NCBI GenBank assembly: GCA_963971425.1
Contig: OZ020514.1
Coordinates: 25,408,602 to 25,472,601, forward strand
Direction of reading: 5' to 3'
From: Bryoerythrophyllum caledonicum
Lineage: Eukaryota > Streptophyta > Bryopsida > Pottiales > Pottiaceae
DNA: 64,000 nucleotides
The notes under the pieces were generated by a model, which did no database searches, was not told the origin of the DNA, and saw nothing but the letters and a program-made list of their open reading frames with translations. Positions 35 to 62,277 of the stretch are shown here, one piece after another. Both the position numbers and the translations under genes were made by a program. Each line of letters starts with the position of its first letter. Position 1 is the first letter of the stretch.

Positions 35-165
35 TATCCTCGAGTTGAGGATATACCATACGGTATGCTGTCGTCTGTATCATTGTAGTCTATCCTCGAG
101 TCGAGGATAGACAATTATGTTTGTTGTCATTAGTTTCAGAGTGGTTTATCCTAAAGTCGAGGATA
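35..165. repeat. Palindrome array, family P1
   Basis: Three near-palindromes lie at 35-53, 91-109 and 147-165, exactly 56 bp apart. The best copy reads TATCCTCGAGTCGAGGATA. They end about 75 bp before the splice acceptor and ATG at 239, so they sit in the 5' intron or leader of the following gene. A fourth copy lies inside the coding exon at 1618-1638. Confidence 0.85.
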
Positions 166-238
166 GACAATTGATTATATTTCAGATTTTTTTTTCCATT
201 ATCCAGTTTCTAATCTCGATTTCTCCTGTCTCATGCAG

Positions 239-1897
239 ATGTTTGGAATGTCTTTCTATGGACTCATTGATGAATCCTTCCGGCTTCGGTACAAGAATCA
301 AATGCAGCGCATTTTTGAGTTGGACATGAATGATTTCATCCACAAAGACTATGTCTACCTTCAGCCTTTGCCTTCCAACGTTGGAGGTGCATCTACATCG
401 ACGTCTCAGGCTGCACCTCTGGAACGCGTTCCAAGGGCCCGAATATTGCCAAGGAGGGCTGAACGTGTTCGCCAACGTGCTCAATGCTCTAGTGCTGGAT
501 CGCGGCATGACTCCCTCAAGACCTAGAGGGCATCTGGTAGAGGTGCACCGACTCAACAACCTCCTCAGGATGACTCTCCCTTGCTCGTCAATCCATATGG
601 GAGCAATGACGGCGTCAATCTTTTGATCCTCAGCTTGGATGATAGTGAGCCGTCATATCGATCTCGTAGTAGATCGCCTCCTCGCCGACCTCATGTGCTC
701 GTGCACGAAGACTTTCCGGTGAACAACGGAGCCGTTCATATGGAAGTTCAAGGTGGTCCTGACATATCTCCTTTGGTTGGTTATGCCCCTGCAACAGATG
801 TTCCCGTCGCTCATACCGCCCCGGCAACAGATGTTCCCGTCGCTGGTAACGCTCCTGCAGCAGAAGTTCCCATCGCTGGTACCGTTGTGAGATATGTCCC
901 TATCATCCTGCTCTCCAACTCCAGTGATGATGAAGGTGGAGATCTTCCCAGTACATCTCAGAATGTGGGGGCACCCACCGTGATGACAATGATGGTTACG
1001 ATGGATGTGGAGGTCGCTTCCCTACCTGATGCCGCCTCCGCAAATGCAGCTGGGCATGCTCCGGCCCCTCGGCCGCCTGTGGAGGGCGCTTCTTTACCTG
1101 ATGCCGCCTTCGCAGATGTAGATGGGCATGCTCAAGCCCTAGGGCTGCCTCTGAAGTATGAACTCGGTGCTAACTTTTATCAGCACCAACGCAACCAACG
1201 CCTTTAGGAGCGGCAAGAGAGGCAGACAATCTTGGCACAGTTAGAGGCTACCCAAAAGAGACAGGCTGAGATGGAATTTGCTTTCGAGAAGCAGCGGGTG
1301 GAGTCTGAGCAAGAGAAGGAGAGGATGGCGGCGTCAATCCGCGCGGAGATCCAAGCGCAGATGTTGGTGGAACTCAACCGACGTCTTGCTGAGCAAGCTC
1401 ACATTTCGGTTCCAGTCCCCACTGCTCCATCCGAATCCGTCGTGTCTCATCCCTTCACATATCCTCGCACCAAGGATAACACTGTGGTTGTGCGTCAATC
1501 TCTTTCAACTGGATTGCAACCTTGCTTTTCATCTCACCCAGTTGGAGAAGCCGCCATTTTGGTTGAGGCGCCAGTTCTGCTTGGGGATATCCCCTCTTCA
1601 TCGTCCGGGCCTTCTGAGTATCCTCGACCCGAGGATACTTTGCCTTTTAATCCAACTCCGATTTATCCTACGGCAGAAGGGGTCGGCGCTGCTGTTCGTG
1701 AGCGTGATGTCCATGCTGGTGGTGCTCCTCTTCCTAGCGGTTTGACTCCATCGGTCCCTGCTCAACTTGGAGAAGAGTCGTCTCATGTGGAAGATGCGGT
1801 GGAGGGAGAGGAGGTCTGCATGGAGGAGCGCATCGACTACGAGTCGTCTCCAGAGCCTCGCGGACCACAATCATCGAACGTGGATAAGGTTGGCTAG
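239..1897 (+). pseudogene. N-terminal exon of NIF-like gene, coiled coil, two in-frame TAG codons
   Basis: A polypyrimidine tract and CAG end at 238 and the frame opens with ATG at 239. One frame runs to 1897 and is interrupted only by TAG at 524-526 and 1205-1207, with no frameshift. The start reads MFGMSFYGLIDES. Next come a Ser/Arg-rich stretch and Ala/Pro-rich imperfect repeats (ATDVPVA; ASLPDAA). After the second stop there is a strongly helical, charged Q/E/R segment of about 50 residues that looks like a coiled coil, then an acidic Ser/Pro tail. The second TAG falls inside the coiled coil, where glutamine would fit. A P1 palindrome at 1618-1638 is translated as EYPRPED. The exon probably ends near 1887, before a GT. 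I do not recognise the N-terminal family. The gene could be a pseudogene or a gene with tolerated nonsense codons. Confidence 0.5.
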
Positions 1898-2089
1898 CTT
1901 TTTAATACATTTTTTGCTCGTTTTATCATGAAGTGTAGCCTTGATTTTTTGGAATGACTGTACTCAGCCTCAGACTCAGTAGGTTTTTTCTTGGATGTGT
2001 TTCCATGCTGGCGTCGGATCCATACGCATTCTTATGTACTTTACAAGGAGTGTATATTTTTGTATATACAATGTTATCATAATTTAAAG

Positions 2090-3125
2090 AATTGTTTAAC
2101 GATTCATTTTCTTCAATTGTTTCTCAAATTGGATTGGATGACATTGTCCACCGTCCTCTTGCATTGAAGTCTCCAAATGGGATAGTTGTATCCCAGTCGC
2201 TATGTGAGGGGGAATTTGTGCAATCAGTGACAATTCCATTACATATTACTCACTCTGCATTTTATCAGGTACCTTCCACTTATTGCTACCATTGACTGTA
2301 TTGTGTGTTGGTCCTGACCCAGGACCTTGTTCTTAGAACTGTGTCTGTTGTTGAGAGCGCCGGACCAGCAAAGTGGCTAAATCTCGTCATGGATTTGAAT
2401 GGCATTCTATGCGTGACGAATTCAGTCTCTATTGTTGTGAGGATTACTGCGCATAGCTCACAACGGACTGATTATTCGTCCACCATTCCTACCTTGATTG
2501 GACCAAAGGCGGTCTACTTTCGTCCCGATATTCGTGAGTTTTTATCGGTCATCAGAAACTTTATGAACTCTGTAGTCATCTGGAGCTCTATGAAGAAATC
2601 CACAGTCGAGGCGATCGCGGCTTGTCTCTTCAAGGATCTGGGGCCTCCCTTTCTTGTTCTAGGTCAAGAGAAATGTTCACAGATAAAAACTTTGCGGAAT
2701 GTGTACCTCATGGCTAAAGATAATAAGGAGAAGCCAATGTTTTTGAAAACCTTGTCAAAAACGTTGTTTAGCCTTCGACATGATTCGGTAGTCTTAACTC
2801 CGACAACACTCTTCTTATAGACGACAGCCCGGAGAAGAGTGTTTGTAATTTTACCGGGAACGCCATCTTCTTGCCTCCATGGAGACGCGGAGATACAAAT
2901 GATGATGTCCTTACCGGGACCCTTCTTTCGAGGCTTCGCCGCTTGCATTCTGAATGTCCTCTCCCGCAATTGAAGAATTACGTGGATAGTAATCGTATAG
3001 GGGAACCTCCTTTGGTGCGTAATAGTCCTATAATGAAGCATATCATTGATGGAATGGCTCTCTCCACAAGGAACATGGGTACTGCGTACGAGATTCCCAA
3101 TGTTTTTAAATCAGCTCCTAAATAG
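2090..3125 (+). pseudogene. NIF/FCP1-like domain without catalytic aspartates, frameshifted
   Basis: Two exons follow: about 2090-2268 (donor CAG|GTACCT) and 2323-3125. The intervening 54-bp intron ends in GACCCAG. The second exon carries LVMDLNGILCV, then YFRPDIREFLSVI and VVIWSS, which are landmarks of the NLI-interacting-factor (FCP1/SCP) HAD phosphatase fold. The family signature DxDxT/V reads DLNGI here, so the second Asp is gone. Near 2803 the frame shifts by one. The new frame continues with TLLIDDSPEK, the expected third motif, and ends at TAG 3123-3125. Loss of catalysis is inferred from the missing Asp. This exon probably belongs to the same gene as 239-1897. Confidence 0.6.
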
Positions 3126-6281: not shown

Positions 6282-6855
6282 CCTCCTATATCTGCATGTG
6301 TTAGATTTTCACATCTCAATTTATTCTATTATTGATTTTCCTCTTGCTGTCATGATTTATCTTTAATGTCTCGGCCTTTTTCTAAATTGCTTGTTGTGTC
6401 TATTGGATCCGACTATATGCCACATTTATTTCCTACGGGTTTGTTCTCGCATGTACTACTAGCATGTCCCCCTTGATCCGCTTTGGAACATCATCAGTTT
6501 TTTTGTAAAGGATCCATTCACTCTTATTTATCATCAGTTATTCTTTCCTCATACTTTTGAGGGATTCACTTCCAAGTTCTCTAGGTACAGTTGGTCACAT
6601 CGGAAGATCCTCCTATTTGTTTTTGCAAGTGCACATGGTACCATTTCACACCCATTAATGTTTCTAACGCTTCTTCTATAAAGCTCCTTTTTTTTAGAAG
6701 AATTTCACGATCTTCAATTTCTTCGATGGATCTCCCAATGCACCTTTGAGCCGTATTTTTTGCACATTCTCTTGATGACTAAATCTAGGCTTTGACCATT
6801 CTGGACTTTTCAAAGTCTAGATTTAATTAAATATGGCATCAAAGAAAAAATTCAC

Positions 6856-8790: not shown

Positions 8791-9356
8791 GTAGGAGGAA
8801 CTTATATATAACGATGGTAATGAATTTACTCCTTGTGTAATGCAGAGTTGAAATTGAGTCAAGTCAAAGCCAGCTGATCCACTGAAAGCATGAAAGAGAA
8901 CTAAACACTATAATCTTGATTCTAATACTAAACATGCCATATTTAAGTAAATCCAGACTTTAGGGTTAAATCTGGACTCTGGCACAAAAACATGTGTCAG
9001 AAGGTACACGGGAAATCCCCCAATCCTAAAGGTAAATAAGGAAATATTCAGAAGAATTGTGAATTACTGAGGTAAATATGGGTGCTTACAAAGGAAAATC
9101 ATTTGAGAATCAAATTTAAATTTTAGTTTGATGAGAACCAATGTCTAAAGATCGGAGGATCATCCAATTCCTGTCAAAGAGACAAATCACTCAATTCATC
9201 AACGGTAACACAGAGGGATCCAACAACACATAACGTCTGCATGAAACAAATAGGCAGTTACTCAGACACGACGTATGAGAAAAATATTGACAAATCGTAA
9301 CTTTATTCATAGAAATTAACACCTCCACGTAAATAACTATCTTATGTAGGAACCAT

Positions 9357-9983
9357 CTACAAAGCCCGTAGTACTCGGTCAATATGCCATGGTTCAAGCA
9401 GTCTACGTCTAAACTTTCCATCCATCTCATGCTGATGAAGATATTTCTTCACCGAGCGATAAGATCGAAGGGGAAAAATGAACGGAAGCAACGCTGTTGC
9501 AATGTCTGGTATGACATTGGATGCATTGGGTAATTCCATTTCACCAAGCCACGACTTCGGAAAGTAACAAGTATCATTTCCGTTGAAAACATGCCGCATT
9601 AGTTGGTCATCAACCATTAATACTCTGTCGGGAAGACAGAGGTTCATAGTCTTCGGATCCGTTGAGAGTCTGTGGAGAACCTTGTCGCATAGAAGATAAT
9701 CCCCAGGCCTAGAGCACTTGTTCCGCCCATAGACGAAAAGAAGCCGAGTCCGTATCTCTTCGGGGAGAATGACTTCAAGAACCTTCTTCAGTCGCGATGG
9801 TACCATGCAAGACCAAATCCCAACATGGAAGGATCTCAAAAGGATTCTAAAGAACTCCAAGAGTCCAGGCCGAACTAAAATATTCTTCGGATTGAAGCGT
9901 CGAGGGGTGCAATGACTGTATTGCTCAAAGGAAAGCAGTCCGTTTACAGAGCAGACGATAACTTTCTTTGGGACGTCAAGTCG
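9357..9983 (-). CDS. NIF-like domain exon, composite locus 1 (second domain)
   Basis: The exon opens after TTGTAG at 9983 and runs about 208 codons to its stop at 9357. It reads KKVIVCSVNGLLSFEQ, then VRPGLLEFFRILL and VGIWSC, which are NIF/FCP1-like landmarks with the catalytic DxD replaced by SVNG. Further on are VLMVDD and ATALLPFIFPLRSYRSVKKY. It is clearly paralogous to 53538-54188 (LPRFNIGLWS; ATVIIPLIFPLHRFSSV). It is the last domain of the minus-strand locus that begins near 16.1 kb. Whether it is spliced to the preceding domain or is a separate gene is unresolved. Confidence 0.6.
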   Translation of the reverse strand, partial: RLDVPKKVIVCSVNGLLSFEQYSHCTPRRFNPKNILVRPGLLEFFRILLRSFHVGIWSCMVPSRLKKVLEVILPEEIRTRLLFVYGRNKCSRPGDYLLCDKVLHRLSTDPKTMNLCLPDRVLMVDDQLMRHVFNGNDTCYFPKSWLGEMELPNASNVIPDIATALLPFIFPLRSYRSVKKYLHQHEMDGKFRRRLLEPWHIDRVLRAL

Positions 9984-10190
9984 CTACAAACATAACAAAT
10001 GAGAAAGGTTATGAAGACAATTGAAGGATCCTCCGGTCGTAAACAATCAATAGACGAGATACAAAAGGACGAATGAAGGTAAAAAAATTTAGAAGAAAAT
10101 TTAAAAGGAATGCACCATGCAACCTTCAAGTTTACTATATGAAAACCAAAGTACAAGATATGACACAAACTATCGCCGAGATACAATTAA

Positions 10191-10876
10191 TCATTTGAAT
10201 CGATTGTTTTTGAGATCCCTCGGCCGAGAACACCCGGTAATGATATTTCTCGCTTCTTCAATAGACCTAAAGCGACTGCCACGCACACATCCAAGGGGAA
10301 CATTTTTCTGAACAAACTTTGCTACAGAGAAGTTGGACGAAAACATCCTCATCAGCCAAGGCTTTAAGTCGGTAATGAGAAACTTATCCGTCATTACACC
10401 AGCCCAAGGGAGAGGATGAATAGCATCATACTCGCCATTAAGGAGGTTTTTCTCAGGACTGTCGTCAATTAGAAACGTCAAGTCACGTGCCACGTGATCA
10501 TGCAGTTTAACGAGTACCGAGAGATCCTTCAACATGTATGCTTTGTTTCTATTCGCGGCTCTGGGAAAGGATGACTTCGTAACATGTGATTGGGTAAGAA
10601 CTATGAGCTCTGATTTGGCATCCACAGTAGAACCTCGCAAAGCATCCTGTAACATGGTATCGATATTCTTCTTCGTGGCGCAATTCCATATCACAACATT
10701 AGCCTGTTGATGCAACCACGCCAGGAAGAGGGGACAGTCGGGCCTAACAAGATTTTCCCTCACCGGACCCAGAGTCCTGTGAATAAGAAATCCATTCAAG
10801 TCGAGGATAATAGTGTATCTCGGCATCCTTACCTTCAACACAGTGGGCGCAAGTGGGACAGCGGCACCAAGAACAT
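10191..10876 (-). CDS. NIF-like domain exon, composite locus 1 (first domain)
   Basis: The frame contains RYTIILDLNGFLIHRT, then LFLAWLHQQANVVIWNC and LTFLIDDSPEKNLL, the ordered blocks of an FCP1/SCP-type HAD phosphatase domain. DxDxT reads DLNGF, so the general-acid Asp is missing; the late DDSPEKN block is kept. The stop is TGA at 10191. The 5' edge is taken as the AG before AAATG near 10870. The splice phase from the exon ending at 10990 does not fit cleanly, so a small lesion or another acceptor is possible. A P2 palindrome sits in the upstream intron at 10922-10941. Confidence 0.6.
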
Positions 10877-10921
10877 TTCTTGTACAAGAGCAAGGTATGA
10901 AGGATGAGTGCGGTGCCAAAT

Positions 10922-10941
10922 GACCGGAGGATCCCCCGGTC
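10922..10941. repeat. P2 palindrome in intron
   Basis: GACCGGAGGATCCCCCGGTC lies between the exon ending at 10990 and the NIF-like exon starting near 10876. A half-site with the same core is at 10026-10038, in the spacer before the second NIF-like domain. Confidence 0.85.
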
Positions 10942-10989
10942 AGATAACAAAGTGGACAATGAAGGCAAAAGATGTGAGGTGGAACTAAC

Positions 10990-11788
10990 CCTGTGAAGAA
11001 GCTGCCAGACCATCATGAGGACCTGATGATTCACCCCTTTTACCAACAATAGCATCAGAAAACGTGGGCACTTTCTTAGGAGGGCTGAATGGCACTAGAT
11101 CGGCACTGGCGTCCTCGAAAATGCTTTGCATCATAGGCTCGTCGGTGCCCTCGGCACCTGTGGAATCTGTAACCCGTACATGAAGTTCAGGAGGAATAGT
11201 AGGATGCAACGTCTGCAGATTCGCTAGTGTGGCGGCTGTTGCCAATGTCGCCGTGCCATCAAGCTGTTGTGCAGCCTCCACTAGGAGGCTGGTGGAGGGC
11301 AGAGAAGAGGGATCAACCCGCTATGCTGTAGGTCGATCATCGGTTGGTGGTACAACCCTTGGTGTGACCCTGCGGGATTTCCTAGTTCTAGGACCAGTGG
11401 GTACACTAGGTACACCGGTTGACGGTGGAGAATGGACATGATCTTCATTTTGTTGCATCTCATCATCCTCGGCCAAAAGGCCTGCCTCCCTTAGTAGAGT
11501 CGGCTCCACAGCATCGAGGACATGTACAACTAAATCGCTCCTAGATACATTCGGGATTGCAGATGCCTTTACAAAGAACGGGTGATCTTCTTCCACTGTA
11601 GAAGACTGCATCAAAGAAGGATCGAGGTAATCGGGGTCCGGAAGCTGCGACCAAGAATAACAGTCTGTGAGTTCGACGTCCCAGTCAGGATTTGCAAACC
11701 CGAATCCAGCACTCCGCATTGAAGGGGGACGGAAGAGAGGATCAAGCCTGAATCGCTCCAGATCGGGATGAATATAGGGATTATTTAC
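10990..11788 (-). pseudogene. Low-complexity linker exon of composite locus 1
   Basis: Acceptor GGATCCAG precedes 11788. The donor is CAGG|GTTAGT at 10989. One frame is open throughout except for TAG at 11321-11323. The start reads VNNPYIHPDLERFRLDP. The exon has an acidic stretch (EDDEMQQNEDHVHSPP), a basic one (RTRKSRRVTPRVVPP) and an Ala/Thr-rich segment. There is no recognisable domain. It lies where the Ser/Pro-rich linker exon (57820-58864) sits in composite locus 2. Confidence 0.5.
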
Positions 11789-11873
11789 CTGGATCCGGCA
11801 GAGAATATGGATTACTAAAGTGGCTGAAAAAGTAATGACTCTATGGCAGACTTGAAAAAAACCAAGGGAAGGC

Positions 11874-11924
11874 GACCGGAGGATCCCCCGGTCCATGCAA
11901 GGAGGACCGGCGGATCCCCCGGTC
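11874..11924. repeat. Two adjacent P2 palindromes in intron
   Basis: Copies at 11874-11893 and 11905-11924 (GACCGGCGGATCCCCCGGTC in the second), 31 bp apart, upstream of the acceptor at 11789. Confidence 0.85.
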
Positions 11925-12233
11925 CATAAAAGGGAAGAGAGAAATTTCAAGCAAAGATTTGAAGATTGTTACCGGGAAAGAAGATGTGTATGCACTCATC
12001 CCGCGACCATCTAGAGCCTGAGATGCCTGCAGCAGGAGGGATATCGAGAATGAAAAAGAAATATCCGATCAAGAGAGACAAGAGCAATTTACCGTCCATT
12101 AAAAGCATAATTTTGTACAGAAAGTATTTAAGCTATCGATTACGTCTAGTTCATGAGTTTGGAGTTAGTAATTGCATCATACATCGTCAGTGCTTTGATC
12201 GGCACCACCAGATTCTCCGTGTTGATCAATATC

Positions 12234-12835
12234 TTAAGCTTCATCTTGGGTTTCCCTAGGAATCTGGGTGAGCAGCAACACCTCCTGCTCTGCTGCGTCG
12301 TCGTTATCCCGTCCGTGTGACGATTCCCCGACCCCAAGTTTCGGGAGCTCGCCTTCCACCTCCACCTCAACGTGACGCTCATTCGAGGGGTCGATCTCTT
12401 GCACTTTAGGCTGACCTGCAACATCTCTCTCTAAAGATGGAGAATCCGAATGTTCAGATCCCATCGACGTTCCCCTATGATCCAAATCCGCACCCGACCC
12501 CGAATCTGTGTGATTAGAATCTGAGTCCGAGTCACGTCTTCCACGTGGTGGGGGGCATCAAAATCCAAATTCCGCTTGGAGCGCAAGTTCTCCTGACGCG
12601 TTATGGCGACTCCACCAGCCTTCTGACCGCCCGTTCGACGTGCTTCGGCTCGCTCCTTCTTTTGCGGTGTCTTTCGCTTACTCTTTTGCAGAGTCTTCTG
12701 CTTCTTCGGTGTTAGTTGAGGAGGTGCCGTGAGGGTAAGCACAACTCGAGATTCTCAGATCGCAGAAGCTCTGGAATGAGCACGAGCCTCATCAAGCTTG
12801 TCGTAGACGATCTCGAGGACTTGTGCGTCCTTAGT
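12234..12835 (-). pseudogene. Charged linker exon(s) of composite locus 1
   Basis: After a possible acceptor TTGCAG the frame reads TKDAQVLEIVYDKLDEAR, hits TGA at 12755-12757, and continues in the same register through a Lys/Arg-rich region (PKKQKTLQKSKRKTPQKK). Around 12550 the plausible coding register changes to an Asp/Ser-rich segment (DSDSNHTDSGSG) and an acidic tail (VEVEVEGELPKLG) that ends at TAA 12234. This is nuclear-type low-complexity sequence. One nonsense codon and one frameshift are visible. Confidence 0.4.
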
Positions 12836-12869
12836 CTGCAATCAAAGAAACAACTTGAGTTGAGATTAC

Positions 12870-13547
12870 CCAATCCATGATATAGCTGAACCCCCGCCAA
12901 CGTTCACAATGACATCGTTCTTCTTCCCGAGCGGGCCAATCAGTTGGTTAACCGCTTCGATGTTGTCATTGCCGCGGCTGTCCTCAACCCATAGAGTGCT
13001 TGCATCCTTGAAGTCTGCTACGTCAAGAACATGCTGGTAAACCAATTCATTACCAAAGAATCTACGGAAGCTGTTTTCCGCGTTGATATTCAGGATCGTG
13101 ACCATAAAGGAAGTTGAAGTACAAGGGTAGGGTAGGCTCAGGAGTTGAAGGATTAGTGAAGCCATCAGTCCCAGACGTAATATACAACGTCGAGGTACAC
13201 TGCCACACTTGCTGCTGCTGGATAGCCTTAGCCTGCTCCGACACAACATTCTTTACTTCCACCATCCCATCTCGATGGGTGATGAACACCCCAGCGAGCA
13301 ATGGCCTCCTGAATTTTTGTTTGTCCTTATACTCCATTGCACCCAAAGTACGGTTGACCTGATCTTTGATGTTCCAGCTGGTACCTCGCGACTCTTGATT
13401 GACGAAGCTGTAGACAACCACGGCCGTTGAACCTTCGATGTACCAGTTCAAGAGAGACCCGTGTTTGAGAGTCCTCTCCAGGTCTCCTGATTTCCGGTTC
13501 ATCACCCAAATACTCAGTCACAATTGCCCCTAGCCTCTCAACCCATG
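12870..13547 (-). pseudogene. Middle exon of the ParB-like gene, composite locus 1
   Basis: The register from 13505 reads LLNWYIEGSTAVVVYSFVNQESR and RPLLAGVFITHRDG, which parallels LYAPSVFIPDDESNFVIETE and RPIVHVGILFNQHG in 58994-60286. Near 13110 the register shifts to ENSFRRFFGNELVYQHVLDV and ends in SAISWIG before donor GTAATC. The exon edge matches the paralogue's VTTLAL|GTAAGT. The possible following intron (12836-12869) is only 34 bp. Function unknown. Confidence 0.5.
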
Positions 13548-13609
13548 CTTGCAATATAATGTTTCAACTAAGTCAGATTGGAGGAAAATGATTGTGATTA
13601 AAGCAGAGC

Positions 13610-13629
13610 GACCGGAGGATCCTCCGGTC
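13610..13629. repeat. Perfect 20-bp P2 palindrome in conserved intron
   Basis: GACCGGAGGATCCTCCGGTC, a perfect palindrome, lies in the intron that starts at donor AAG|GTTAGT (13675). The same intron in the paralogues at 60.3 and 29.9 kb carries other palindromes. Confidence 0.9.
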
Positions 13630-13675
13630 TAAATCTAAGGGGAAGAAAGTTGGAAGAATATCAATCGAGACTAAC

Positions 13676-33545: not shown

Positions 33546-33559
33546 AAGGGCCACCAATG

Positions 33560-47219: not shown

Positions 47220-47605
47220 GGAGACGAGGTTCCTTATCCAACAAGCAATCAAGAAAAGGCAATTGAGAAGGCAAAAGATAGGGTTTTCAAAGCAATTGAT
47301 AAGAGGTCCTTCATTAAATCAAGAATTCAAGGTTATATAAAATTCTGGGAAAAGGGGATGGAAAAATGTGAGGGCTTTCGACGTGCTTTTCCACCGTATA
47401 TTGCATACTGGAATGCAATTCTTGAAGAACTTGAGAACCTCTTCCTTCCACACCCCTGGCTTTGGTAGAAGGATTTTGGCCGATTCAAGATTGGAGTGCG
47501 ATAATTTTTGCTGCTTTGAGCCTTAATACTAGAGGAGATGTCACACCTAAAAATTAGGAGCCTAAACCTTTCTGTGGCCCACGTTCAAGCTGAACGAAGG
47601 TCGCT
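47220..47605 (+). pseudogene. DUF7869-like gene, helical linker
   Basis: After TGA at 47217-47219 the same gene continues as AIEKAKDRVFKAIDKR, SFIKSRIQGYIKFWEKG and FPPYIAYWNAILEEL before TAG near 47469. It matches the decayed copy at 35.0-35.2 kb. Confidence 0.5.
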
Positions 47606-48917: not shown

Positions 48918-49249
48918 TATGGCATATATGTAAGTTTTTTTCTTTTCCAATATTCCTTTCTTTTCTCACTTTCATTTCCAAAAGAATGTTCTTATTTTTT
49001 CCAATCTTCTACTTGTAGTTTCATTTTCCCTCTATATATACATTCTACTCTGTCCAATTTTTGAGATTTTCCTTTTGCTCCATACCTACGTCGTATTATT
49101 CCCAATCTCTTTCTTGCAAATTCTTGTTTTTCCACACGCACTCAACCTTTCTTTACTTTGATGCTTAAGATGTTCACAATATCATTTTTATGGTATCATA
49201 CGCTAATTGTCCACAAGTAAAAAACTTTATGTTCCACTATTTACTAGAA

Positions 49250-49605
49250 TTGACATTTAGTGTAGTAGTTGACATTTAGTGTATTATGGTTTTGTCACTA
49301 CACTTATTGTAAATTTTACAACTAGTGTATGGGTTCGTATTAAGTGTCCACTACACTTGAAGCCATCTTGTGTATAGTGGAGCTAAAGAGTGCATTTTTG
49401 CTTTCTAATCCACTCCATTTAGTGATGGTGCACAATTTAGCTCTAGTGGAGCTAAACTGTGCGTACTGTCTTTTTAGTTCACTGCACCTAGTGATGGGGC
49501 TCACTTTTGCACTACTGGAGCTAAAGTGTGTGCACACACTCCTTTTAGTTCATTGCATGTAGTGATGGAGCACACCTCCGCTAAAAACCGAGCTAATGTG
49601 TGTGC
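49250..49605. repeat. Transposon-end-like motifs and P6-type hairpins
   Basis: 49254-49290 has two copies of GACATTTAGTGTA, close to the inner end of the terminal repeat of the 7.1-kb element. From 49375 to 49605 four units of about 60 bp carry (TTTAGCTC)...GAGCTAAA pairs, for example around 49438-49462. The same kind of hairpin follows the other copy of the 1.3-kb duplication at 6.86 kb. Confidence 0.65.
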
Positions 49606-50940
49606 AATGTGTATTTCCACTTCTTCAAACAATCATTTTAAACTCCCTACTTCTTTTGATGGTTCGGTATTTCACAAGGTGAAATACAAATCTTTTGAAT
49701 TTTAAAAGGATTTTCAAAATATGTGGACCTAAATCTCCAATAATCATATTAAAAAGCAAAAAAATATGACAATCTCTTAGTCTTCACTGGATATGAAGTC
49801 TAAGTATTCTTGGTACCCTAAACCAAAAATATGTGACAATGTGTGAGAATGTATGAATTGGGATATAATCTTATTTTTCACTAGAAAAATAACATGTTTT
49901 TCCACAATATTAATTGTTCTAATATTAGTTCTATGTATTGAAAATATCACATTCCATAGTGTGTCATAGCAAAAGGTTTTTAAGTTGCCGGACATGCCGG
50001 CAATCGAGAAGTTTCTCTTTTGGCTAGCATAACTTTTATTGAAGACGTTCAATGAGAAAATAATTTACTTAGTAATATGCCTCATGTCTTCTATCATCCT
50101 TCTACAAAATTTTGAGAATTTAAAATATAATTTGCAACCACAAGAACGTGCTCAAAAACTTATTATTCTTTTATTGCATGTATAAACAAATCCAAAATTA
50201 CTTACATTACGAACATTAAATCATGCTTGATGGACTAAATGTATGTTTCTTCTTTGTATTAGTTATATTTTATATTTTGATTATCCTTTTTTTGTCATGA
50301 AGAGGTCATTCCATTTCTTGTTTAAATCTTTTAATATTGTTCCACTCTCTATTTTTTACAAATGACAAAGTCTTTAATTTCACGTCAAAACATAAAATAA
50401 ACTTCGTATTGTCAAGAATTCCTCCATCTTTCATGTCATGCTTAGATTGTTACACCCTAATCTCATGATAATACAATGTGAACTCAAGAATAAGATAGTT
50501 TAATTTAACCATTAGTTTGCGCACATTTTCAGTCTTTGAGTACTTAGTGGATAGTAATTAATTTCAATTCCAAATCCAGACCATGGGAAGACTAGGATTT
50601 TTGCAAAAGAATGAACATTCTAAAATGATTACAAAATAGTAAACATTATTCACTTTTTGAAAACCCCCAAAAAGCGATGTCCAAAGCATGTTTGAATACA
50701 TACTTTTTTGCTCAAAATACATGTGCACTTATAATTTGTTTTTTGTTTTTCTAATGCTAATCCTTCGTTGAGGTCTTTGCTTTCAACTTTATAAATAAGT
50801 CCTATTTGGATTGTAAGACAAATTCATTCTAATCATCTCAATATCTTCTCTACATTTCCTCATATCCTAGTTAAATTCTCAATATCCGAAATACTCAAAG
50901 TATTAGTAAATTGAAATGAAATATCATCACAAGGATAATA
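49606..50940. other. AT-rich spacer, no gene seen
   Basis: Only short frames and no clear repeats. Confidence 0.5.
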
Positions 50941-50944
50941 CCTA

Positions 50945-51075
50945 AACCAAGGGCCCCAAACCCTGAGCCCTAAACTTGAACCTAAATTCTAGACTCTAAA
51001 TCCTAAACCCTAAATCCTAAACCTCAAACCCTAAATCCTAACCCTAATCCTAACCCTGAGCGTTACCGTAACCCT
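50945..51075. repeat. Interstitial telomere-like tract
   Basis: About a dozen imperfect CCCTAAA/CCTAAAC units (for example AAACCCTAAATCCTAACCC), the complement of TTTAGGG. Confidence 0.8.
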
Positions 51076-51289
51076 TAATCCCACAATTATGTGTATACTG
51101 GTCGCATGTGCGAGTATATTCGAGGTATGTACTCTTTCGAATTGAATCTACCGAGTAAGAGTTGATTCAGTTTCCCGCCGCGATTTCAAATTTTCACTTT
51201 TTAAGGGGCTGTGGAAAAGTTTCCTCCCGCCAATTCTTAAATTGTAGCCCGCAATTGAAACGGTCGTGTGTCCGTGATTGACCTCGGCG

Positions 51290-51643
51290 AACTTCGCCTA
51301 GTTTCTTCATTTCTTTCCTTCTTTACTTCTTTCCTTCTTTACTTGAGCTAATTTGGCTTTCTTCATTTCTTCATTTCTTTCATTTCTCCATTTCTCCATT
51401 TCTCCATTTCTCCATTTCTTCATTTCTTTCCTTCATTTCTTTCCTTCTTTACTTGAGCTAAATTGGCTTTCTTTCCTTCTTTCCTTCTTTACTTGAGCTA
51501 AATTGTCATACCATATCACCATCAACAGTTTAGCTCGACTCAAGCTAAACTGTCATATCTTATTTTCTACGATAGTTTAGCTCGACTCGAGCTAAATTGT
51601 CATACCGTTTGTAGTCAACTTTTTAGCTCGGATCGAGCTAAAA
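51290..51643. repeat. Pyrimidine-rich repeats and P6 palindrome array
   Basis: 51290-51500 is built of TTTCTTCATTTC, CTTCTTTCC and ACTTGAGCTAA units. It leads into three clear palindromes at 51528-51550, 51575-51597 and 51621-51643, with 46-47-bp spacing and core TTTAGCTCGACTCGAGCTAA. The array lies about 290 bp 5' of the ATG at 51929. Confidence 0.85.
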
Positions 51644-53537: not shown

Positions 53538-54188
53538 TCATTCAACTTCCGACCATCTGACGACGGCTCGCCCATACTTGCGCGCATGCGTAACCGCCCA
53601 ATGCGCCTGCCCCACGCGTTCAACCTGCGTCATAAATTCAGGGACGGATGAAAATCTATGGAGGGGGAAGATGAGCGGAATGATGACGGTCGCCATATTC
53701 GGGATTACTCCATCTTCGGTTGGAGAGGTCAAATGACCACGGAACGGCCAGGGGGTATAGCACATCCAGCCAGGATAACGTCGGAGCGATTTGGGATCTA
53801 CGTCGACAAACAATACTTGGTGGGGCTTGCAGACTCGTCTAGATTGCTTCTTCTTGTTGAGCGTGTACGGCGTTTTGTAGCTCCAAGGAAACCTGGAACT
53901 ATCAGCTAAGTCACTTTTGCTATAAACAAACGACAAACATTGAAAGACTCCTTCTGAAAGAATATGCAACAAGAGCGGCTTTAACTTGTTTAGAGGCATC
54001 GTTGACCACAACCCGATGTTGAAGCGTGGAAGTAACATTTCGAATAGTTTTTTAGGCCCGGCCTCCGGACAACATTCCCATGAGGGAAATGAGAAGATAT
54101 CGGCTTGCAAGGGTCCACATAGCAAAGAAGACCATTGACGCATAGTACAATACATTTTTGAATCGGTGATGGAGGAGCGTGCAGGCAT
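53538..54188 (-). CDS. NIF-like domain 4, composite locus 2
   Basis: A 216-codon open frame that ends in TGA at 53538. FEMLLPRFNIGLWS, FVYSKSDLADS, VLFVDVDPKSL and ATVIIPLIFPLHRFSSVPEF match the second NIF-like domain of locus 1 (9357-9983). The N-terminal DxD block seems to be missing or in a short upstream exon. The acceptor is CATTTCAG before ATG 54188 or TTTTCCAG 23 bp further up. A P3 palindrome lies in the upstream intron at 54273-54289. Confidence 0.55.
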   Translation of the reverse strand: MPARSSITDSKMYCTMRQWSSLLCGPLQADIFSFPSWECCPEAGPKKLFEMLLPRFNIGLWSTMPLNKLKPLLLHILSEGVFQCLSFVYSKSDLADSSRFPWSYKTPYTLNKKKQSRRVCKPHQVLFVDVDPKSLRRYPGWMCYTPWPFRGHLTSPTEDGVIPNMATVIIPLIFPLHRFSSVPEFMTQVERVGQAHWAVTHARKYGRAVVRWSEVE

Positions 54189-54272
54189 CTGAAATGGAAG
54201 GATGTTCCCTGGAAAATGTTAAAGAAACATTGTCATGATGCAAACTACAGGTGGAAGTGAGAAGTTAAACAC

Positions 54273-54289
54273 GTCGGCGGGCCGCCGAC
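54273..54289. repeat. Perfect-arm P3 palindrome
   Basis: GTCGGCGGGCCGCCGAC in the gap between NIF-like domains 3 and 4. Confidence 0.9.
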
Positions 54290-54561
54290 AAAGGAAACTA
54301 CAACAAGTAGATGGATAAGAAACAAACCAATCAAATGAAATATGCGAGGAATATAAAACAGAGAAAAGTAGTTCAACAAAATTTGAGATGAATATATAAA
54401 AGTAATTACATGAAATTGTCTATAACATTCATCAGTGTATTACGATGGGCTAGAGTCCAGTGAATTTAAGTGAGTGCCCTTTCGAGAGGCCCTTTGAGAA
54501 AATATGGCTCTCTAAGGTGAGGGAGTGACTGTCAACTTGGCCATTACTTCATCTAGACAAC

Positions 54562-55533
54562 CTAGCTTGTCGTAGCCCTCTTGGTAAGAAGAGAGGACTT
54601 CTCGGTATCTGTTGTGGATAGCTGTTCCCGGAAAAATACAATGCTGACCAAATCAGAGTTCAGCCTGCAGTAATCCTGGACGCTGAATCTGGACTCGAGT
54701 AGTCCCTAGAGCCAGGGAATCAACATACTTTGAAGATACGTATGTCCTCCAGGCAGTGTGTGTTCCGGGGGAGAGTATGTAAATATTGAAGGATGCACTG
54801 CATTAAAAGGATCATTTATGATATTATGGAGGGGGTAATGATCGATCAAAAGTGTGTTCCGTTCATTTGCGTCTGGCTCAATAAGATAGCGTCTATCTTA
54901 AAAATGACGAGCAAGCCGCTTCAGCAGCATGTAGCACTTCATTGTTTTGGGATTCGTCCAGGCAGATATATCACAAAACCCGTTAGTCATCTCTCGGACG
55001 TCCTTATGTAGGTCAGGGTACACCTCGCGCAAATAACCCATGTGTCTGATCATGGGTTGATATTTCTCGGCAGACCAGAATGCCAATCCAAAGTTGGACT
55101 GGCAGAGCGTCAGAAACTCAAGAAGACCCAACTTAGGTTTTTGATGAAAATGGGGCTTCTTATCTCTTCCCGGATAACCATATCGTTCAGCCATTAGAAG
55201 CCCTCTAACTTCTAGGACGAGATAGTATCTTGAAGGACCCACCTGAATGTTCCTTGGAACAACTTCGGAGCTCACACTAGCAGCCGGGTATGAGGTAGAT
55301 GTAGCTGTCGGCGGCCCGCCGACTACTCCGACCGCCCCAGGCCAAGCTTTGTCAGAGACAAAGGCTTGGCTGTCGCCTTCTCGGTTGATACCGTGGTCCG
55401 CGACGGATTCGAGAGGAACACGGTGGACACATTCGGGCCCTACCTCGTCCATCGGTGATGATGCAAAGTCTCGATCGTTAGCTTCCGTACAGAAGAAGTG
55501 GGAAGGACGAATGTCGGGGAGGGAAGCCGTTGA
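54562..55533 (-). pseudogene. NIF-like domain 3, composite locus 2, nonsense codons
   Basis: One register carries YYLVLEVRGLLMAERYG (catalytic DxDxT replaced by EVRGL), KPKLGLLEFLTLCQSNFGLAF, then TAA at 54898-54900, then NERNTLLIDHYPLHNII and DPFNAVHPSIF. TAG at 54706-54708 follows PWL, and GLLESRFSV then matches GLLESGLPV of domain 2. It ends at TAG 54562. No indel is needed to follow the homology. Upstream, another TAG (55534-55536) closes the frame. A P3 palindrome at 55307-55323 lies inside the frame and is translated as VGGPPTA. Confidence 0.6.
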
Positions 55534-55826
55534 CTACCAGCCATCGATCGGGTGACGACTCGGTCTCTCCGGTGAGCTGTCATCGAGTATTATAATAACC
55601 GGATTTTTTGAAATCGAAACAAGCTCCTCAATCTCCTCAAGAGGACAGTCCACTTGAATGAAAAAGTCAATTCAAATGCATACAATAAGTGATGAGCCAT
55701 GTGCAAGGGAGACTGTAATTATTGAGAGGAATTTTATTTCGAAGAGAAATGGTGTTACAGACATGAATGTCAAAGCCTGACAAAATTGGGCGATTTTGGC
55801 GTGGGCTGCCCGCCGGCGCCGAATTA

Positions 55827-56546
55827 CTATGCAACGATACAAGGGGGACGCCTACTGCTTGGGTACGCCAAAACAAAGTCCTCCCATTGTGGGTCACCGG
55901 GGGAGAGTCGAGGGCATCCAGAGCCTGGATTCCTCCGAATACATTTGGGTACAGGCAAGCCTGACTCTAACAAACCGGAAAGGTACTTAACGACCCTGGG
56001 AAGAACGACGTTCTTGTCCAACTCCGTTGACTCTTGGGTTAATGTCATCAGATGCATGACATTCAGAGGATTATTCTCGACATTCCTGATAGGACAGTCG
56101 TCAAGCAAAAGGGTGTTCTGACTATTCGCGCCAGATCCTAACATTGCCTTTCGGTTCAAAAACAAAGTAGACAGTCTCATGAGGAATACGTTCCGAGTTC
56201 CTACCAGTTTCTTAGCTACATCACAGTAGGAATTATTGTACACGTGTCTGACTACTTTAAGAATAGGGTAGTGGCCTCTGAGGGCTATCAATTAGGCAGC
56301 GAGTTTAGGCTGACTTTCGCTACTCCAAAGCACAACTGTGAAGTTATCCACTCAGAAGTTGATAAACTCAGCCAACTTCGGCCTGAATTTGGTATGCCAC
56401 TTTCTGTCCCTGCCTATATTCTGTGCGATCAACAAACCATTTACACCTAGGACAATGAAGTAGTCATTGACCTTCACAGTTGGCAGCTCAGGATGCTTCT
56501 GGATGGATTCTCCCCCCGCTTGAGACCCTGCCACAATGTGGAGCAC
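55827..56546 (-). pseudogene. NIF-like domain 2, composite locus 2, two nonsense codons
   Basis: Acceptor GCCTCCAG precedes 56546. The frame reads YFIVLGVNGLLIAQNIG (DxD replaced by GVNG), KFRPKLAEFINF, TGA (56352-56354, where domain 1 has Cys), VDNFTVVLWSS, TAA (56292-56294, where domain 1 has Glu), HVYNNSYCDVAKKLVGTRN, NTLLLDDCPIRNV and LSPGDPQWEDFVLAYPSSRR, ending in TAG-TAA at 55827. The block order equals that of domain 1, and both end shortly after SYPSNRR/AYPSSRR, so this TAG is probably a true terminus. Confidence 0.65.
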
Positions 56547-56714
56547 CTGGAGGCAAAAGTCGACGACATAGATATAATAAGTATCAAACATAAGCACCGA
56601 ACACTGTGATTGTTATGACGACATAAATTTGGAATATGAACCTCAGAAAGTTGGAGACAATATTTATTTATGTAGATTTATATAGGCGTGAATTACAACA
56701 CGGGTTCTGCAAGT

Positions 56715-56731
56715 GTTGGCTGCCTGCCGAC
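56715..56731. repeat. P3 palindrome after domain 1
   Basis: GTTGGCTGCCTGCCGAC, 9 bp beyond the stop codon of domain 1 and before the acceptor of domain 2. Confidence 0.8.
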
Positions 56732-56739
56732 GGCAAGTT

Positions 56740-57602
56740 CTAAGTAGGACTAGGACGTGGACGCCTATTGCTTGGGTACGACCATATGTACTGCTCCCAT
56801 TCAGGGTCACCTGGTAGGAGACGACGGATCCAAGGGACGACGGCCCTGGCAGTGGAGGTTTTCTCTTGTTCTACCAGGCGAAGGGCTGCCATTTTTGGAC
56901 TTTCAAAAGGCACAACCGATTCCTTCACCAAAGAAAGGCAATCAACAACCGCGGTATACAAAGATATAGGCATGCCTGACTCTTTCATGGCTTCAAGGAA
57001 TTTTGAGACCTTGAAGAGAATAGAGGACTCATTCGTAAAGGTCTCAATAGAATCCATGGTGAAGGAAACCGGATGGATGGCATTATATGGACAGTTTTTG
57101 ACATTTGAAAAAGGAGAAATGTCAATCAACAGAGTGTTGCCGCTATTCACTTCAGTTCTTTTTAGCGCCGCGGGACTCAAGAAAAGAGTAGACAACCTCT
57201 TTAGGTAGAGTTTCTGACCCCCAACACCAAACCTCGCCACGTCGCAGTACGACTGATCAAAAACATAACGAAGCCTTCTAATGCTGGGACATGCATCTCT
57301 AAGGGTTTTCATTTCATGGGCATGCCTATCTGGATTCTCCGAACTCCAGATCACAATACTGAAGTTCGTAACGCAGTAGTTAAGAAACTCAACCATGCGT
57401 GGCCGGATCTTGCTATACAACGACCCGTCCTTGTCAATATCGAAGGCGAGTAACAGACCGTCTACTTGGAGGACAAGGAAATAGTTACTGAGTGGTTGTC
57501 TGCCCACCTGAATGAAGTGCTCAAGTGCCTCCGTTTCCCGATCCGCTCCATCTTCGTCGATTGCTGGAGTTGAAACGGCAGCAGTAGGAATACCCGGATG
57601 AA
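56740..57602 (-). CDS. NIF-like domain 1, composite locus 2, intact frame
   Basis: The exon begins after CAATCAGCAG at 57602 and is open to TAG 56740, about 287 codons. GADRETEALEHFIQ leads to NYFLVLQVDGLLLAFDIDKD, KIRPRMVEFLNYCVTNFSIVI, VFDQSYCDVARFGVGGQKLY, NTLLIDISPFSNVKN and LLPGDPEWEQYIWSYPSNRR. It is the best preserved NIF/FCP1-like domain here; the nucleophile position of DxDxT reads QVDGL, so only one acidic residue remains. The splice from 57820 (phase 1) gives a continuous reading SGVHPGIP, which ties this domain to the ParB-like exons upstream in one transcript. Confidence 0.7.
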
Positions 57603-57641
57603 CTGCTGATTGATAGAAATATGGAAGCTATTAGATATACA

Positions 57642-60286: not shown

Positions 60287-60436
60287 CTGTAAAATGATGA
60301 AGATTACATAAACAGGAGCTCAAGCACAATGTTGTCGGCTGCCCGCCGACGAAACATAAACAATGATTTAATTCCACCATGCTCATGAGATTGCCAATAA
60401 CGGAGCGTGAAATTGCTGAGTGAAGTAGCACATTAC
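60287..60436 (-). other. Conserved 150-bp intron with P3 palindrome
   Basis: Donor GTAATG at 60436 and acceptor TTTTACAG at 60287 join WK|KFCK in phase 0. GTCGGCTGCCCGCCGAC lies at 60334-60350. The same donor position is used in the copies at 13675 and 29930, where the introns contain P2 and P4 palindromes. Confidence 0.85.
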
Positions 60437-61773
60437 CTTCCATTTCTTGTAGTTGGTCCTCCTATCGAGTCGACCATGCTCGATCCACTTATCCCTCATC
60501 TTCCACAGCTGTGACACGAAGGTCTCCTCCGCTTTCTTGTCCTTGATTTCAATGTTTAAGAGGTTGGAGATCTTCACAAGGTTTTCCGGATCCCTCAACC
60601 ACAGTGGGATAATATCGTGATCAAGGAAGTAATTCGCCCTGTCCGAATCCACAGGCTCTAACTCGCCGAGTGCTTTGCATGCCAGGTACGTGTGTTGGCC
60701 ACCAATGATGTACCAGTGGCATGTTGGAGAATTCCACCACTTGAAGTGTACTCCGTCAAGCACAACTTCGACGTCCATGGACGCGTGAATCCTTGGCAGC
60801 ACAAGCTCGATCCCGTGCAACACCCTCCCATTCTCTTTTGTTCTCGGAGGACCCTGCAGAGGAACACAGTACAGAGGCGGCTTTGCCCGCCATGGTCCCA
60901 ATGCTCTGTAGAATAGCACGAGTTGTTCTGTGCGCTTCGCGATGATGGGTCTGTACTTCATTGAGTCGGGAGCAACATGAATTTTTCGGAGAAGATCTTT
61001 GCCGGAAGCATGTTCTGCCCGAATGGATAACAGGCGCTAAGACCATCCTCTAACGCCTTGTACATGATGTCCAGCTCCTGACCACTTGTCTTGACAGAGA
61101 GGTGGTTGGCAAATGAAAGCGCATCGGCCACCGACTTCACCTTCGGCTCCTTCATAGATGCCCTCCTCTTGACCACCTACATACTCAACTCTCCGATGTC
61201 GGGAGTTCCAGCAACTTCAGTCCGAGCGTTGCTACGTACTTTCCTGGAGTTCCTGGGCTTCCTCATAGTCTTTGATTTTGAGGCCGTCATGACCCCGACC
61301 CTGGAGTGCTCCGCGTCCCTAAGGTCCTTCGCTTCTTCAAAACAGGTAAGCAAATCCATCATGTCTTCAGGAGTCAAGCCGAGGAACTGCATCCCGCTCT
61401 CCTGAGCAGTGATGCATAGCTCTTGAGTGCAGGTCATCCAGGGAATTCGAACTGCGATGATGTCCGAGTTTTCGTCAGTCATTTTGACCTTCACCTGAAT
61501 GAGGAGTCGCACTTTCTCCTCGTCCTCCGGGTCCTCCTTCATGTCAAGCACGGACACCAGGCTCCCACCCAGGAATGTTTTTGGGTTGTGATTTCCGTTG
61601 ATACCCAACTCGGCAATTACTTACTTTCTCCATGTGATGCCCCATGGCGTTAACTGTGGGTGAACTTCACATGTGACTCGTGGCATGATGTCATCCGGCC
61701 AGCCTACGTCCACTTCAACGTCCACAGCACTGCCGACGAGCCACTTCAGCTTGTTTGGAACTACAGTCCTGCG
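60437..61773 (-). pseudogene. ParB/sulfiredoxin-like exon, composite locus 2
   Basis: From acceptor CGTCGCGCAG: VVPNKLKWLVGSAVDVEVDV, PWGITWRK, TAA (61621-61623), VIAELGINGNHNPKTFLGG, LLIQVKVKMTDE, a basic linker (KSKTMRKPRNSRK), TAG (61177-61179), VKRRASMKEPK. Near 61020 the register shifts, and RKIHVAPDSMKYRPI leads to GVHFKWWNSPTCHWYIIGGQ and HTYLACKALG, the ParB-like GGQH box, then KKAEETFVSQLWKMRDKW before donor AAG|GTAATG. WGITWRK and IHVAPDSMKYRP align with WGLAWEKD and LHKAPARKVVYRP of locus 1. Two nonsense codons and one frameshift are visible. Confidence 0.6.
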
Positions 61774-61811
61774 CGACGTGATGGAAGATCAGACAACCTG
61801 CCAAAGACTTT

Positions 61812-62277
61812 GTCGGCGGGCCGCCGACGACCACAGTGACAAGTGTACAACACATAGACGGTTGTTTGGAGACACTATGACCTTGGAATCCACACTACAC
61901 ACTCTACTTATCACCTCTGTGCGATAGACCCTAATACAACATAAGCTTCTACAAGACTGAACTTAGCATTCGTCGGCGGGTCGCCGACGGACGCAGTCAA
62001 TTGTGAATCACAAAATAACATTTTGAAGATCCTATGACATATTCATTCTGAAACCTGACTACATCCACTTGTGATCACTTCTAAGTTCTGAACGAAAATT
62101 CAATTACAACAGTATGTTTAACTACACTGAACACAACATCCATCGGCGGGCCACCAACGAAACACCATAAACCAAAAGGGCATATCTAATACGGCATCCG
62201 AAATCGGTCGGCTGGCCGCCGACGGTGATGATGTACATACCTCTGCGTTGTCGCCATTTTGTCGGCGGGTGGGAATT
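61812..62277. repeat. P3 palindrome array upstream of composite locus 2
   Basis: Copies at 61812-61828 (GTCGGCGGGCCGCCGAC), 61972-61988, 62142-62158, 62207-62223, and a half-site at 62261. Spacing is 54-170 bp, wider than in the other arrays. The array lies just 5' of the exon that begins at 61773. Confidence 0.9.

What the first reader, a model, noticed from the sequence alone, without database searches (positions are those of the whole stretch)
35..62277. Six or more families of short palindromes, each confined to its own stretch of the window
P1 (TATCCTCGAGTCGAGGATA) 0-1.7 kb; P2 (GACCGGAGGATCCTCCGGTC) 10-16 kb; P4 (GTCGGTTGGCAACCGAC) 29.8-38 kb; P5 (GATAGGAAGATCTTTCGATC) 40-48.4 kb plus its duplicate at 6 kb; P6 (TTTAGCTCGACTCGAGCTAA) 49.4-51.7 kb plus 6.9 kb; P3 (GTCGGCGGGCCGCCGAC) 53-62.3 kb. 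The arms differ completely between most families while the architecture (dyad symmetry, 46-68-bp arrays, intronic singletons) is the same. The family follows the neighbourhood, not the gene: P5 flanks both a ParB-like gene and a DUF7869-like gene. This suggests local copying or homogenisation of hairpin-forming units, or domain-specific binding sites. I know of no named system with this layout.
Basis: partly seen in the sequence, partly recalled or inferred. Interest (0 to 1): 0.9.

Follow-up and report, generated by a model that had tools for sequence, protein, structure and literature searches.

The report
Transposon-specific palindromic DNA recognition sites
In what looks like a moss genome, most of these palindrome families belong each to one family of large DNA transposons with a transposase-like gene and a companion gene; the palindromes keep their symmetry as they change alongside the companion protein, as expected of self-recognition sites in related selfish elements.

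Summary
The palindromes are real: perfect arms of 8 or more, 35 against 5.0 in shuffles. They do not mark chromosomal domains. Each family belongs to a family of large, often nested transposons. Four class B1 copies with both ends found are 16.9-19.1 kb, with 28-bp inverted ends (26 of 28 match) and 4-bp target duplications in 4 of 4; the window holds three such ends. The elements carry a DUF7869 gene whose predicted fold resembles DDE/D transposases and a companion gene; 71 of 72 pairs found are head to head. Palindromes lie upstream of the companion gene, near the DUF7869 gene and between companion exons. Of 241 listed genomic sites of four types, 151 lie within 8 kb of a listed companion gene: 150 of their own class, one by an intermediate gene; 90 are unassigned. 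Scattered P2 and P3 sites share the core but hardly their flanks. Loci of a further class, fetched blind, carried a new variant of the expected template. Best reading: sites for an element-encoded dimeric DNA-binding protein, working like VANDAL/VANC anti-silencing in Arabidopsis, but on Sola-like transposons with unrelated proteins. Binding is untested.

The parts
35..165 (.). P1 array (35, 91, 147), 56-bp period; another P1 site at 1619 and, outside the window, at -2937 and -1468 (L041)
2296..3122 (+). NIF/FCP-like domain frames of the P1 element; its companion (GQH) exon lies at -1888..-1529 in L041
   Evidence: 2296-2817 is PF03031, E 6e-5; 2784-3122 matches the P2 NIF frame, 44% over 50 aa; GQH match 25% over 80 aa, E 3e-4
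6812..6839 (-). Transposon right end (P5-type), end of the 5510-6839 duplicate
   Evidence: 3 mismatches of 28 to the class B1 end; duplicate ends here
8934..8961 (+). Transposon left end: start of the P2 element
   Evidence: 3 mismatches of 28
9360..11012 (-). NIF-like frames of the P2 element (10194-11012 is PF03031; 9360-9983 a diverged relative)
10019..13629 (.). P2 scattered sites (10019 weak, 10922, 11874, 11905, 13610) between or beside open frames
13664..15061 (-). P2 companion (GQH, 'ParB-like') coding region in three open pieces
   Evidence: 30-48% to 39221-40318; 57% to the L039 companion
15217..15696 (.). P2 array, 8 sites at about 66 bp, upstream of the companion start
29877..30983 (-). 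Decayed P4 companion gene
   Evidence: 46-48% to P3 and C48 companions over 175-177 aa
31015..31161 (.). P4 sites (31015 perfect, 31145 with 3 mismatches), upstream of the decayed companion
33175..35428 (+). Decayed opposite-strand gene of the P4 element: 33175-33625 matches a frame upstream of and opposite to the C48 companion in L045; 34537-34875 matches the P5 DUF7869 gene
   Evidence: 49-62%; 46% over 54 aa
39221..40318 (-). P5 (class A) companion gene, 365 aa open frame, lacking its downstream part
   Evidence: 115 genomic matches listed
40353..40865 (.). P5 array upstream of the companion ATG, 126-bp double unit
   Evidence: upstream P5-type sites (up to 3 mismatches) in 30 of 30 class A loci, the window's own copy included, at least 4 each
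44325..44808 (.). P5 sites upstream of the DUF7869 gene
44927..47216 (+). DUF7869 (DDE/D-like transposase) gene of the P5 element
   Evidence: PF25273 E 4.9e-30 at 46533-47216; fold of a relative
46087..48367 (.). P5 sites within and downstream of the DUF7869 gene (46087, 46170, 48041, 48228, 48348)
48898..48925 (-). Right end of the P5 element
49436..51641 (.). P6 sites (49436, 49505, 51529, 51576, 51622); others at 6858 and 6927
   Evidence: P6-type sites also bracket a 956-aa DUF7869 frame in L036
51827..52776 (+). Start of a P6-type DUF7869-related gene, broken off near 52.78 kb
   Evidence: 66% DNA to L036 4646-4988; 35-37% protein to the P5 gene
53299..62223 (.). P3 sites, 14 between 53.3 and 62.2 kb, both orientations, unrelated flanks; two (55307, 58365) lie inside long frames
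53541..57627 (-). NIF and NIF-like frames of the P3 element
   Evidence: PF03031 E 3.3e-10; paralogy
60386..61788 (-). P3 companion (GQH) gene; P3 sites upstream at 61812-62223
   Evidence: 150 genomic matches, all that were scored; L043 copy 87-95%

Best explanation
Each palindrome family is the recognition-site set of one family of large (about 17-19 kb where measured), Sola-like DNA transposons with inverted ends and 4-bp target duplications. SHOWN by sequence: elements carry a DUF7869 gene with a DDE/D-type fold and a companion gene (GQH domain, collinear with NIF-phosphatase-like frames in P1, P2 and P3), head to head in classes A, B1, L39 and P2; the palindrome lies in arrays upstream of the companion gene, near the DUF7869 gene, between companion exons and towards the end; the palindrome differs between companion classes while dyad symmetry is kept. 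INFERRED: an element-encoded protein, most likely the companion, binds the palindrome as a dimer in a class-specific way and so picks out its own element, to keep its genes expressed against host silencing (VANC-like anti-silencing or autoregulation). Arrays grow by tandem duplication.
For: Excess of palindromes. Class specificity against 279 gene places in six companion classes: class B1 20-mer exact, 34 of 46 sites within 8 kb of a B1 companion (all 34 within 1 kb upstream), 0 near another class; P2 exact, 21 of 39 near P2-class genes, 0 near another; L39 type with up to 1 mismatch, 38 of 59 near L39 genes, 1 near a 64%-identical intermediate that I had counted as P2, 0 near another; P3 exact sites listed on C1, 57 of 97 near P3-class genes, 0 near another, random placement mean 1.4 and maximum 4 of 200 trials. 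Blind test: two loci of the C48 class, fetched without knowing their palindromes, each had GTCGGCTGGCAGCCGAC-type sites (3 each) as the largest local family; in 8 of 8 element stretches the largest family was reached by 0 of 60 shuffles for one of the two word lengths tried, and a 7-kb retrotransposon-like control had none. Flanks: P3 core 1.48 bits per position, flanks 0.04 and 0.13 (n=14); P2 scattered sites of two copies, oriented by the gene, core 1.61, flanks 0.15 and 0.08 (n=12). Companion identity (C-terminal region) against palindrome mismatches: 52-60% with 4-8 of 20; 48-53% with 2-4 of 17; 13-29% with palindromes of other lengths. Head-to-head pairs 71 of 72. Ends and target duplications 4 of 4. 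Transposase-like fold.
Against: No binding was measured. Gene and palindrome in one transposon share descent, so association alone would also arise by hitchhiking. 90 of 241 listed sites (12 of 46, 18 of 39, 20 of 59, 40 of 97) have no listed companion within 8 kb; gene lists are lower bounds. 49 of the 121 DUF7869 hits used had no listed companion within 25 kb, and none of the 121 lay by a P3 or C48 companion (the list holds P5-like forms), so the pairing is not shown for those classes except for traces in L045 and P4. No DNA-binding domain or ParB membership could be shown for the companion; its model was useless, pLDDT 36. The N-terminal part of the DUF7869 gene also diverges (49% against 79%, L035 against P5), so the transposase may be the binder. 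Class B1 sites of L038 (mostly array, flanks 0.51 and 0.41, n=15) and P5 sites near DUF7869 (0.27 and 0.36, n=10) do share flanks. Intron palindromes of class A copies are no clearer conserved than neighbours (0.033 and 0.050 against 0.02-0.09). In the table the class A and L39 palindromes are idealised symmetric forms. No P6 companion was seen.
Confidence: 0.7

Rival explanations
1. The palindromes are sites for the transposase itself (DUF7869), used to build the transposition complex or to regulate its promoter, as with subterminal repeats of other DNA transposons; the companion does something else.
For: Sites lie near the DUF7869 gene and towards the element end (L047 988 and 1226, end at 1719); P6 sites bracket a DUF7869 frame with no companion seen; the N-terminal part of DUF7869 diverges between P2 and P5 (49% against 79%).
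Against: Arrays sit at the companion start (P2, P5, B1) and many sites lie between companion exons, far from the ends; class assignment was made on companion classes only, so this test does not separate the two proteins.
Confidence: 0.25
2. The palindromes act as RNA hairpins in 5' leaders and introns.
For: Most sites lie between exons or just upstream of genes; 7-8-bp stems with 3-4 nt loops are possible.
Against: Asymmetric pairs are not biased to G.U in the sense strand: GT 66 against AC 72, p=0.67, 198 of other kinds (one subset, the P5 sites near DUF7869, is 17 to 1, but its sites are related); P3 sites occur in both orientations; no Rfam family in the window.
Confidence: 0.05
3. The palindromes are tiny mobile units or are spread by local gene conversion.
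For: Tandem arrays exist and differ in copy number between class A copies.
Against: Scattered P2 and P3 sites have nearly unrelated flanks; the same variant recurs in copies on many chromosomes. Precise presence or absence of single palindromes was not tested.
Confidence: 0.05
4. Passive hitchhiking: the palindromes are old features of each element without present function.
For: Shared descent suffices for class association; no clear conservation signal in class A introns.
Against: Many non-homologous positions in one element share one variant, and symmetric sites occur with different arms in different classes; chance decay would break symmetry.
Confidence: 0.1

Closest known systems
VANDAL transposons and VANC anti-silencing proteins (Arabidopsis; PMC5735166, passages read; PMC10398659, abstract and section list read)
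   Same: Element-encoded protein with class-specific short motifs in non-coding regions; tandem repeats of targets, found in introns of VANC21 and VANB21 and upstream of VANA21; related proteins have different targets.
   Different: VANC21's motif is a 9-bp YAGTATTAY; here the motif is a 17-20 bp palindrome. No Pfam, NCBIfam or PDB relative of the companion was found; the transposase-like protein matches only DUF7869 in Pfam and the elements show 4-bp target duplications. No silencing or methylation data here.
Sola superfamily of DNA transposons (PMC10741241, passage read)
   Same: DDD-type transposase, 4-bp target duplications, lengths sometimes over 15 kb, known in the moss Physcomitrella patens.
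   Different: No Sola reference sequence was at hand, so homology is untested; palindrome arrays and a companion are not mentioned in the passage read.
ParB-parS partition (PMC7383237, search listing and start of abstract seen)
   Same: Palindromic sites and a protein family whose DNA preference has diversified; the companion has a GGQH motif like the ParB/Srx group by eye and recall.
   Different: No ParB profile match; a nuclear transposon, not a replicon.
En/Spm TnpA with subterminal motifs (recalled, not looked up)
   Same: Element-encoded protein binds arrays of short motifs and activates the element.
   Different: Motifs sit at the ends only; different transposase superfamily.

Membership tests
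Cut-and-paste DNA transposon | Inverted terminal repeats and target-site duplication of fixed length | tested here: met
   28-bp ends, 26 of 28 match; 4-bp duplication in 4 of 4 class B1 copies with both ends found; of five copies looked at, one (C9) had its left end outside the fetched stretch
Cut-and-paste DNA transposon | RNase H-fold DDE/D transposase | tested here: met
Sola superfamily | 4-bp target duplication | tested here: met
   feature from PMC10741241
Sola superfamily | Sequence homology to a Sola transposase | not testable with these tools
   No Repbase library; Pfam gives DUF7869 (PF25273) only, apart from sub-threshold matches
VANDAL/VANC | Class-specific motifs in non-coding regions, often in tandem arrays | tested here: met
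VANDAL/VANC | Mutator-type transposase and VANC-family protein in the element | tested here: not met
   No such Pfam family for the companion or DUF7869 proteins scanned; a relation too distant for profiles is not excluded
VANDAL/VANC | Sequence-specific loss of DNA methylation by the encoded protein | not testable with these tools
   needs methylome data
ParB-parS | ParB/Srx domain by profile match | tested here: not met
   No ParB match in Pfam, NCBIfam or PDB sequences at E <= 10
ParB-parS | Fold of the companion | tested here: inconclusive
   Model pLDDT 36

The most novel reading that the evidence does not exclude
The companion is one long protein in which a palindrome-binding part is followed by NIF/FCP-like (RNA polymerase II tail phosphatase-like) domains, so the transposon tethers a transcription-machinery effector to its own chromatin through a class-specific palindromic code: a second, independently evolved self-recognition and anti-silencing system of plant transposons, with at least eight palindrome-companion pairs in one genome (P1, P2, P3, P4, P5/A, B1, L39, C48).
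Probability: 0.3. Interest if true: 0.88.

Novelty: new variant of a known kind. Interest (0 to 1): 0.74.

Why it matters
One genome holds at least eight palindrome variants on three templates, each found with its own companion class. That is a natural experiment on how a DNA-binding specificity and its dispersed sites change together, and a test of whether transposons outside the Mutator group evolved element-specific anti-silencing. It also gives DUF7869 a likely role as a transposase.

Tried and rejected
Chromosomal-domain sites: rejected, since the same variants recur with the same gene class on many chromosomes. RNA hairpins: no G.U bias overall. ParB membership: no profile support, so 'ParB-like' is kept only as a nickname. 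Companion structure: pLDDT 36, not searched. DUF7869: Foldseek alone gave no significant match; VIA-align re-ranking did. P3 partner: I expected a DUF7869 gene to the right of the window; the 7 kb fetched there reads by eye as an LTR retrotransposon, with no P3 site and no DUF7869 match, so the head-to-head layout is not shown for P3. P1, P5 and P6 palindrome scans of the genome, an end-mapping search for P3 and a genome count of the transposon end did not complete. Purifying selection on intron palindromes: not clear. Homologues of the companion in public proteins: 1 and 2. Paper searches: DUF7869 (0 papers); moss, sex chromosome, transposable element, Ceratodon, transposase together (0); physcomitri, transposon, transposase, palindrom (4, unrelated by title and abstract start): no report of this system seen, in that library only. 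On re-checking, my first P2 flank figures mixed the orientation of homologous sites; the corrected ones are, and the class tests, first run on four classes, were rerun on all six there with the same counts.
Full report
OBSERVATION. The window lies at C1:25408602-25472601 of a 437-Mb assembly. The relatives of its DUF7869 protein that bear an organism name are moss proteins, from Ceratodon purpureus and Physcomitrium patens, so the organism is probably a moss.

WHAT THE PALINDROMES BELONG TO. Within the window a companion ('ParB-like', GQH) gene recurs in the P2, P3 and P5 stretches and as a decayed copy in P4; in P1 a weak match to it lies just left of the window (25% over 80 aa). Palindromes sit upstream of its start in each of P2, P3, P4 and P5. 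P2 and P3 continue from it into NIF-phosphatase-like frames, as does P1. The P5 stretch also has a DUF7869 gene on the opposite strand, and DUF7869-related pieces lie in P4 and P6. Genome searches with the companion listed 115 matches to the P5 form, 95 to the L039 form (overlapping sets) and 150, all that were scored, to the P3 form. From these I sorted 279 gene places by identity into classes A 63, B1 30, L39 26, P2 10, P3 105 and C48 45. Of 121 DUF7869 hits used (of 150 listed), 72 have a companion within 25 kb and 71 of these are head to head, with median gaps of 7-9 kb by class; DUF7869 identity to the P5 form differs by class: A median 79%, L39 68%, P2 66%, B1 65%. None of the 121 lies by a P3 or C48 companion; the list holds P5-like forms only. 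In L045 (C48) a frame upstream of and opposite to the companion matches window 33175-33625 in the P4 stretch, which fits the same layout.

THE ELEMENT HAS ENDS. Three class B1 copies stop matching at the same base. The end reads as a 28-bp terminal repeat; the other end was found in inverted orientation with 26 of 28 matches. In all four copies with both ends recovered the flanks carry a 4-bp direct repeat: AAGT, GTGT, AAAG and ATAT; a fifth copy had its left end outside the fetched stretch. Lengths from those coordinates are 18,556, 16,968, 19,137 and 16,942 bp. The window shows the same end at 6812-6839 and 48898-48925 (P5-type right ends) and 8934-8961 (P2 left end). So these are DNA transposons. 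P1, P3 and P6 ends were not found.

PALINDROME AND COMPANION GO TOGETHER. Class B1 (GATCGTAAGATCTTACGATC): 34 of 46 exact genomic sites lie by a B1 companion, all 34 within 1 kb upstream, none near another class. P2: 21 of 39 exact sites within 8 kb of a P2-class companion, none near another. L39 type (up to 1 mismatch): 38 of 59 near L39 companions, one near an intermediate gene counted as P2, none near another. P3: 57 of the 97 exact sites listed on C1 near P3 companions, none near another class, against 1.4 expected. All 30 class A loci, the window's own included, have at least 4 P5-type sites within 1.5 kb upstream. Two loci of the C48 class fetched afterwards showed a variant not seen before, GTCGGCTGGCAGCCGAC, on the P3/P4 template, which none of 60 shuffles reached. 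Symmetric sites with different arms occur in each class; the arms differ at matching positions (class A and L39 forms are idealised).

WHY BINDING SITES. Scattered sites of P3 share the core (1.48 bits per position) but not the flanks (0.04 and 0.13; n=14); scattered P2 sites likewise (1.61 against 0.15 and 0.08; n=12 from two copies). That pattern is what a trans-acting recognition factor leaves and is not expected from copying of larger units. Arrays have related flanks and are tandem duplicates; P5 sites near the DUF7869 gene lie between (0.27 and 0.36). Perfect symmetry suggests a dimer. Each of nine variants contains one to four CpG, which would matter if binding depends on methylation; that is only an idea.

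MECHANISM. The closest parallel is VANDAL/VANC (PMC5735166): class-specific motifs in tandem repeats, in introns of element genes and upstream of the transposase gene, bound by an element-encoded anti-silencing protein. I commit to a functional analogue: the companion (or, less likely, the transposase) binds the palindromes of its own class and keeps the element expressed. Steps shown: element, genes, arrays, class-specific association, kept symmetry. Steps inferred: protein binding, its dimeric nature, anti-silencing. Introns are inferred from open frames and splice-donor-like ends read by eye. It is not a VANDAL by membership: no Mutator transposase or VANC family was found.

LIMITS. 90 of 241 listed sites have no listed companion gene within 8 kb. 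Shared descent of gene and site inside one transposon explains part of the association by itself. The companion's binding domain is unknown. P6 has no companion in what I saw. The copy-level conservation test was not clear.

Noticed in passing
window 18459-28567: A 10-kb tandem array of an 18-bp unit (556 copies, 86% matches) with strong GC skew (about 0.4), open in several frames on both strands.
   Followed up: no
window 7128-8790 and 38542-38988: A separate small DNA transposon, it seems: inverted ends ACTACACTAAAAATCACATTTAGTGT (by eye) and a 294-aa frame 63% identical over 57 aa to 38542-38988, which matches DDE_1 (PF03184).
   Followed up: partly
G000:C1 (65 Mb): 82 of the 129 companion places of classes A, B1, L39 and P2 lie on C1, which is 14.9% of the assembly (binomial p about 4e-36); C1 may be a non-recombining sex chromosome.
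   Followed up: partly
window 2296-3122, 10194-11012, 56743-57627: NIF/FCP-like domains carried by the P1, P2 and P3 elements; by eye the P1 and P2 forms read DLNG where the DxDx(T/V) catalytic motif (recalled) is expected, so they may be inactive or altered phosphatases.
   Followed up: no
L036 3632-3774: A 143-bp near-perfect inverted repeat (70 pairs) built from P6-type palindrome units, upstream of a 956-aa uninterrupted DUF7869 frame.
   Followed up: no
L011 141-308: An inverted repeat of 81 pairs with a 4-bp loop beside a class A companion gene, perhaps a small non-autonomous element.
   Followed up: no
L046 1-7000 (right of the window): Reads by eye as a gypsy-like LTR retrotransposon with zinc-knuckle-like frames; it has no local palindrome family.
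   Followed up: partly
window 42679-42711 and 50981-51053: Interstitial telomere-like CCCTAAA repeats.
   Followed up: no
window 52.76-52.80 kb: A P6-type DUF7869 gene appears to break off where the P3 stretch begins, suggesting that the P3 element was inserted into it; the junction was not confirmed.
   Followed up: partly
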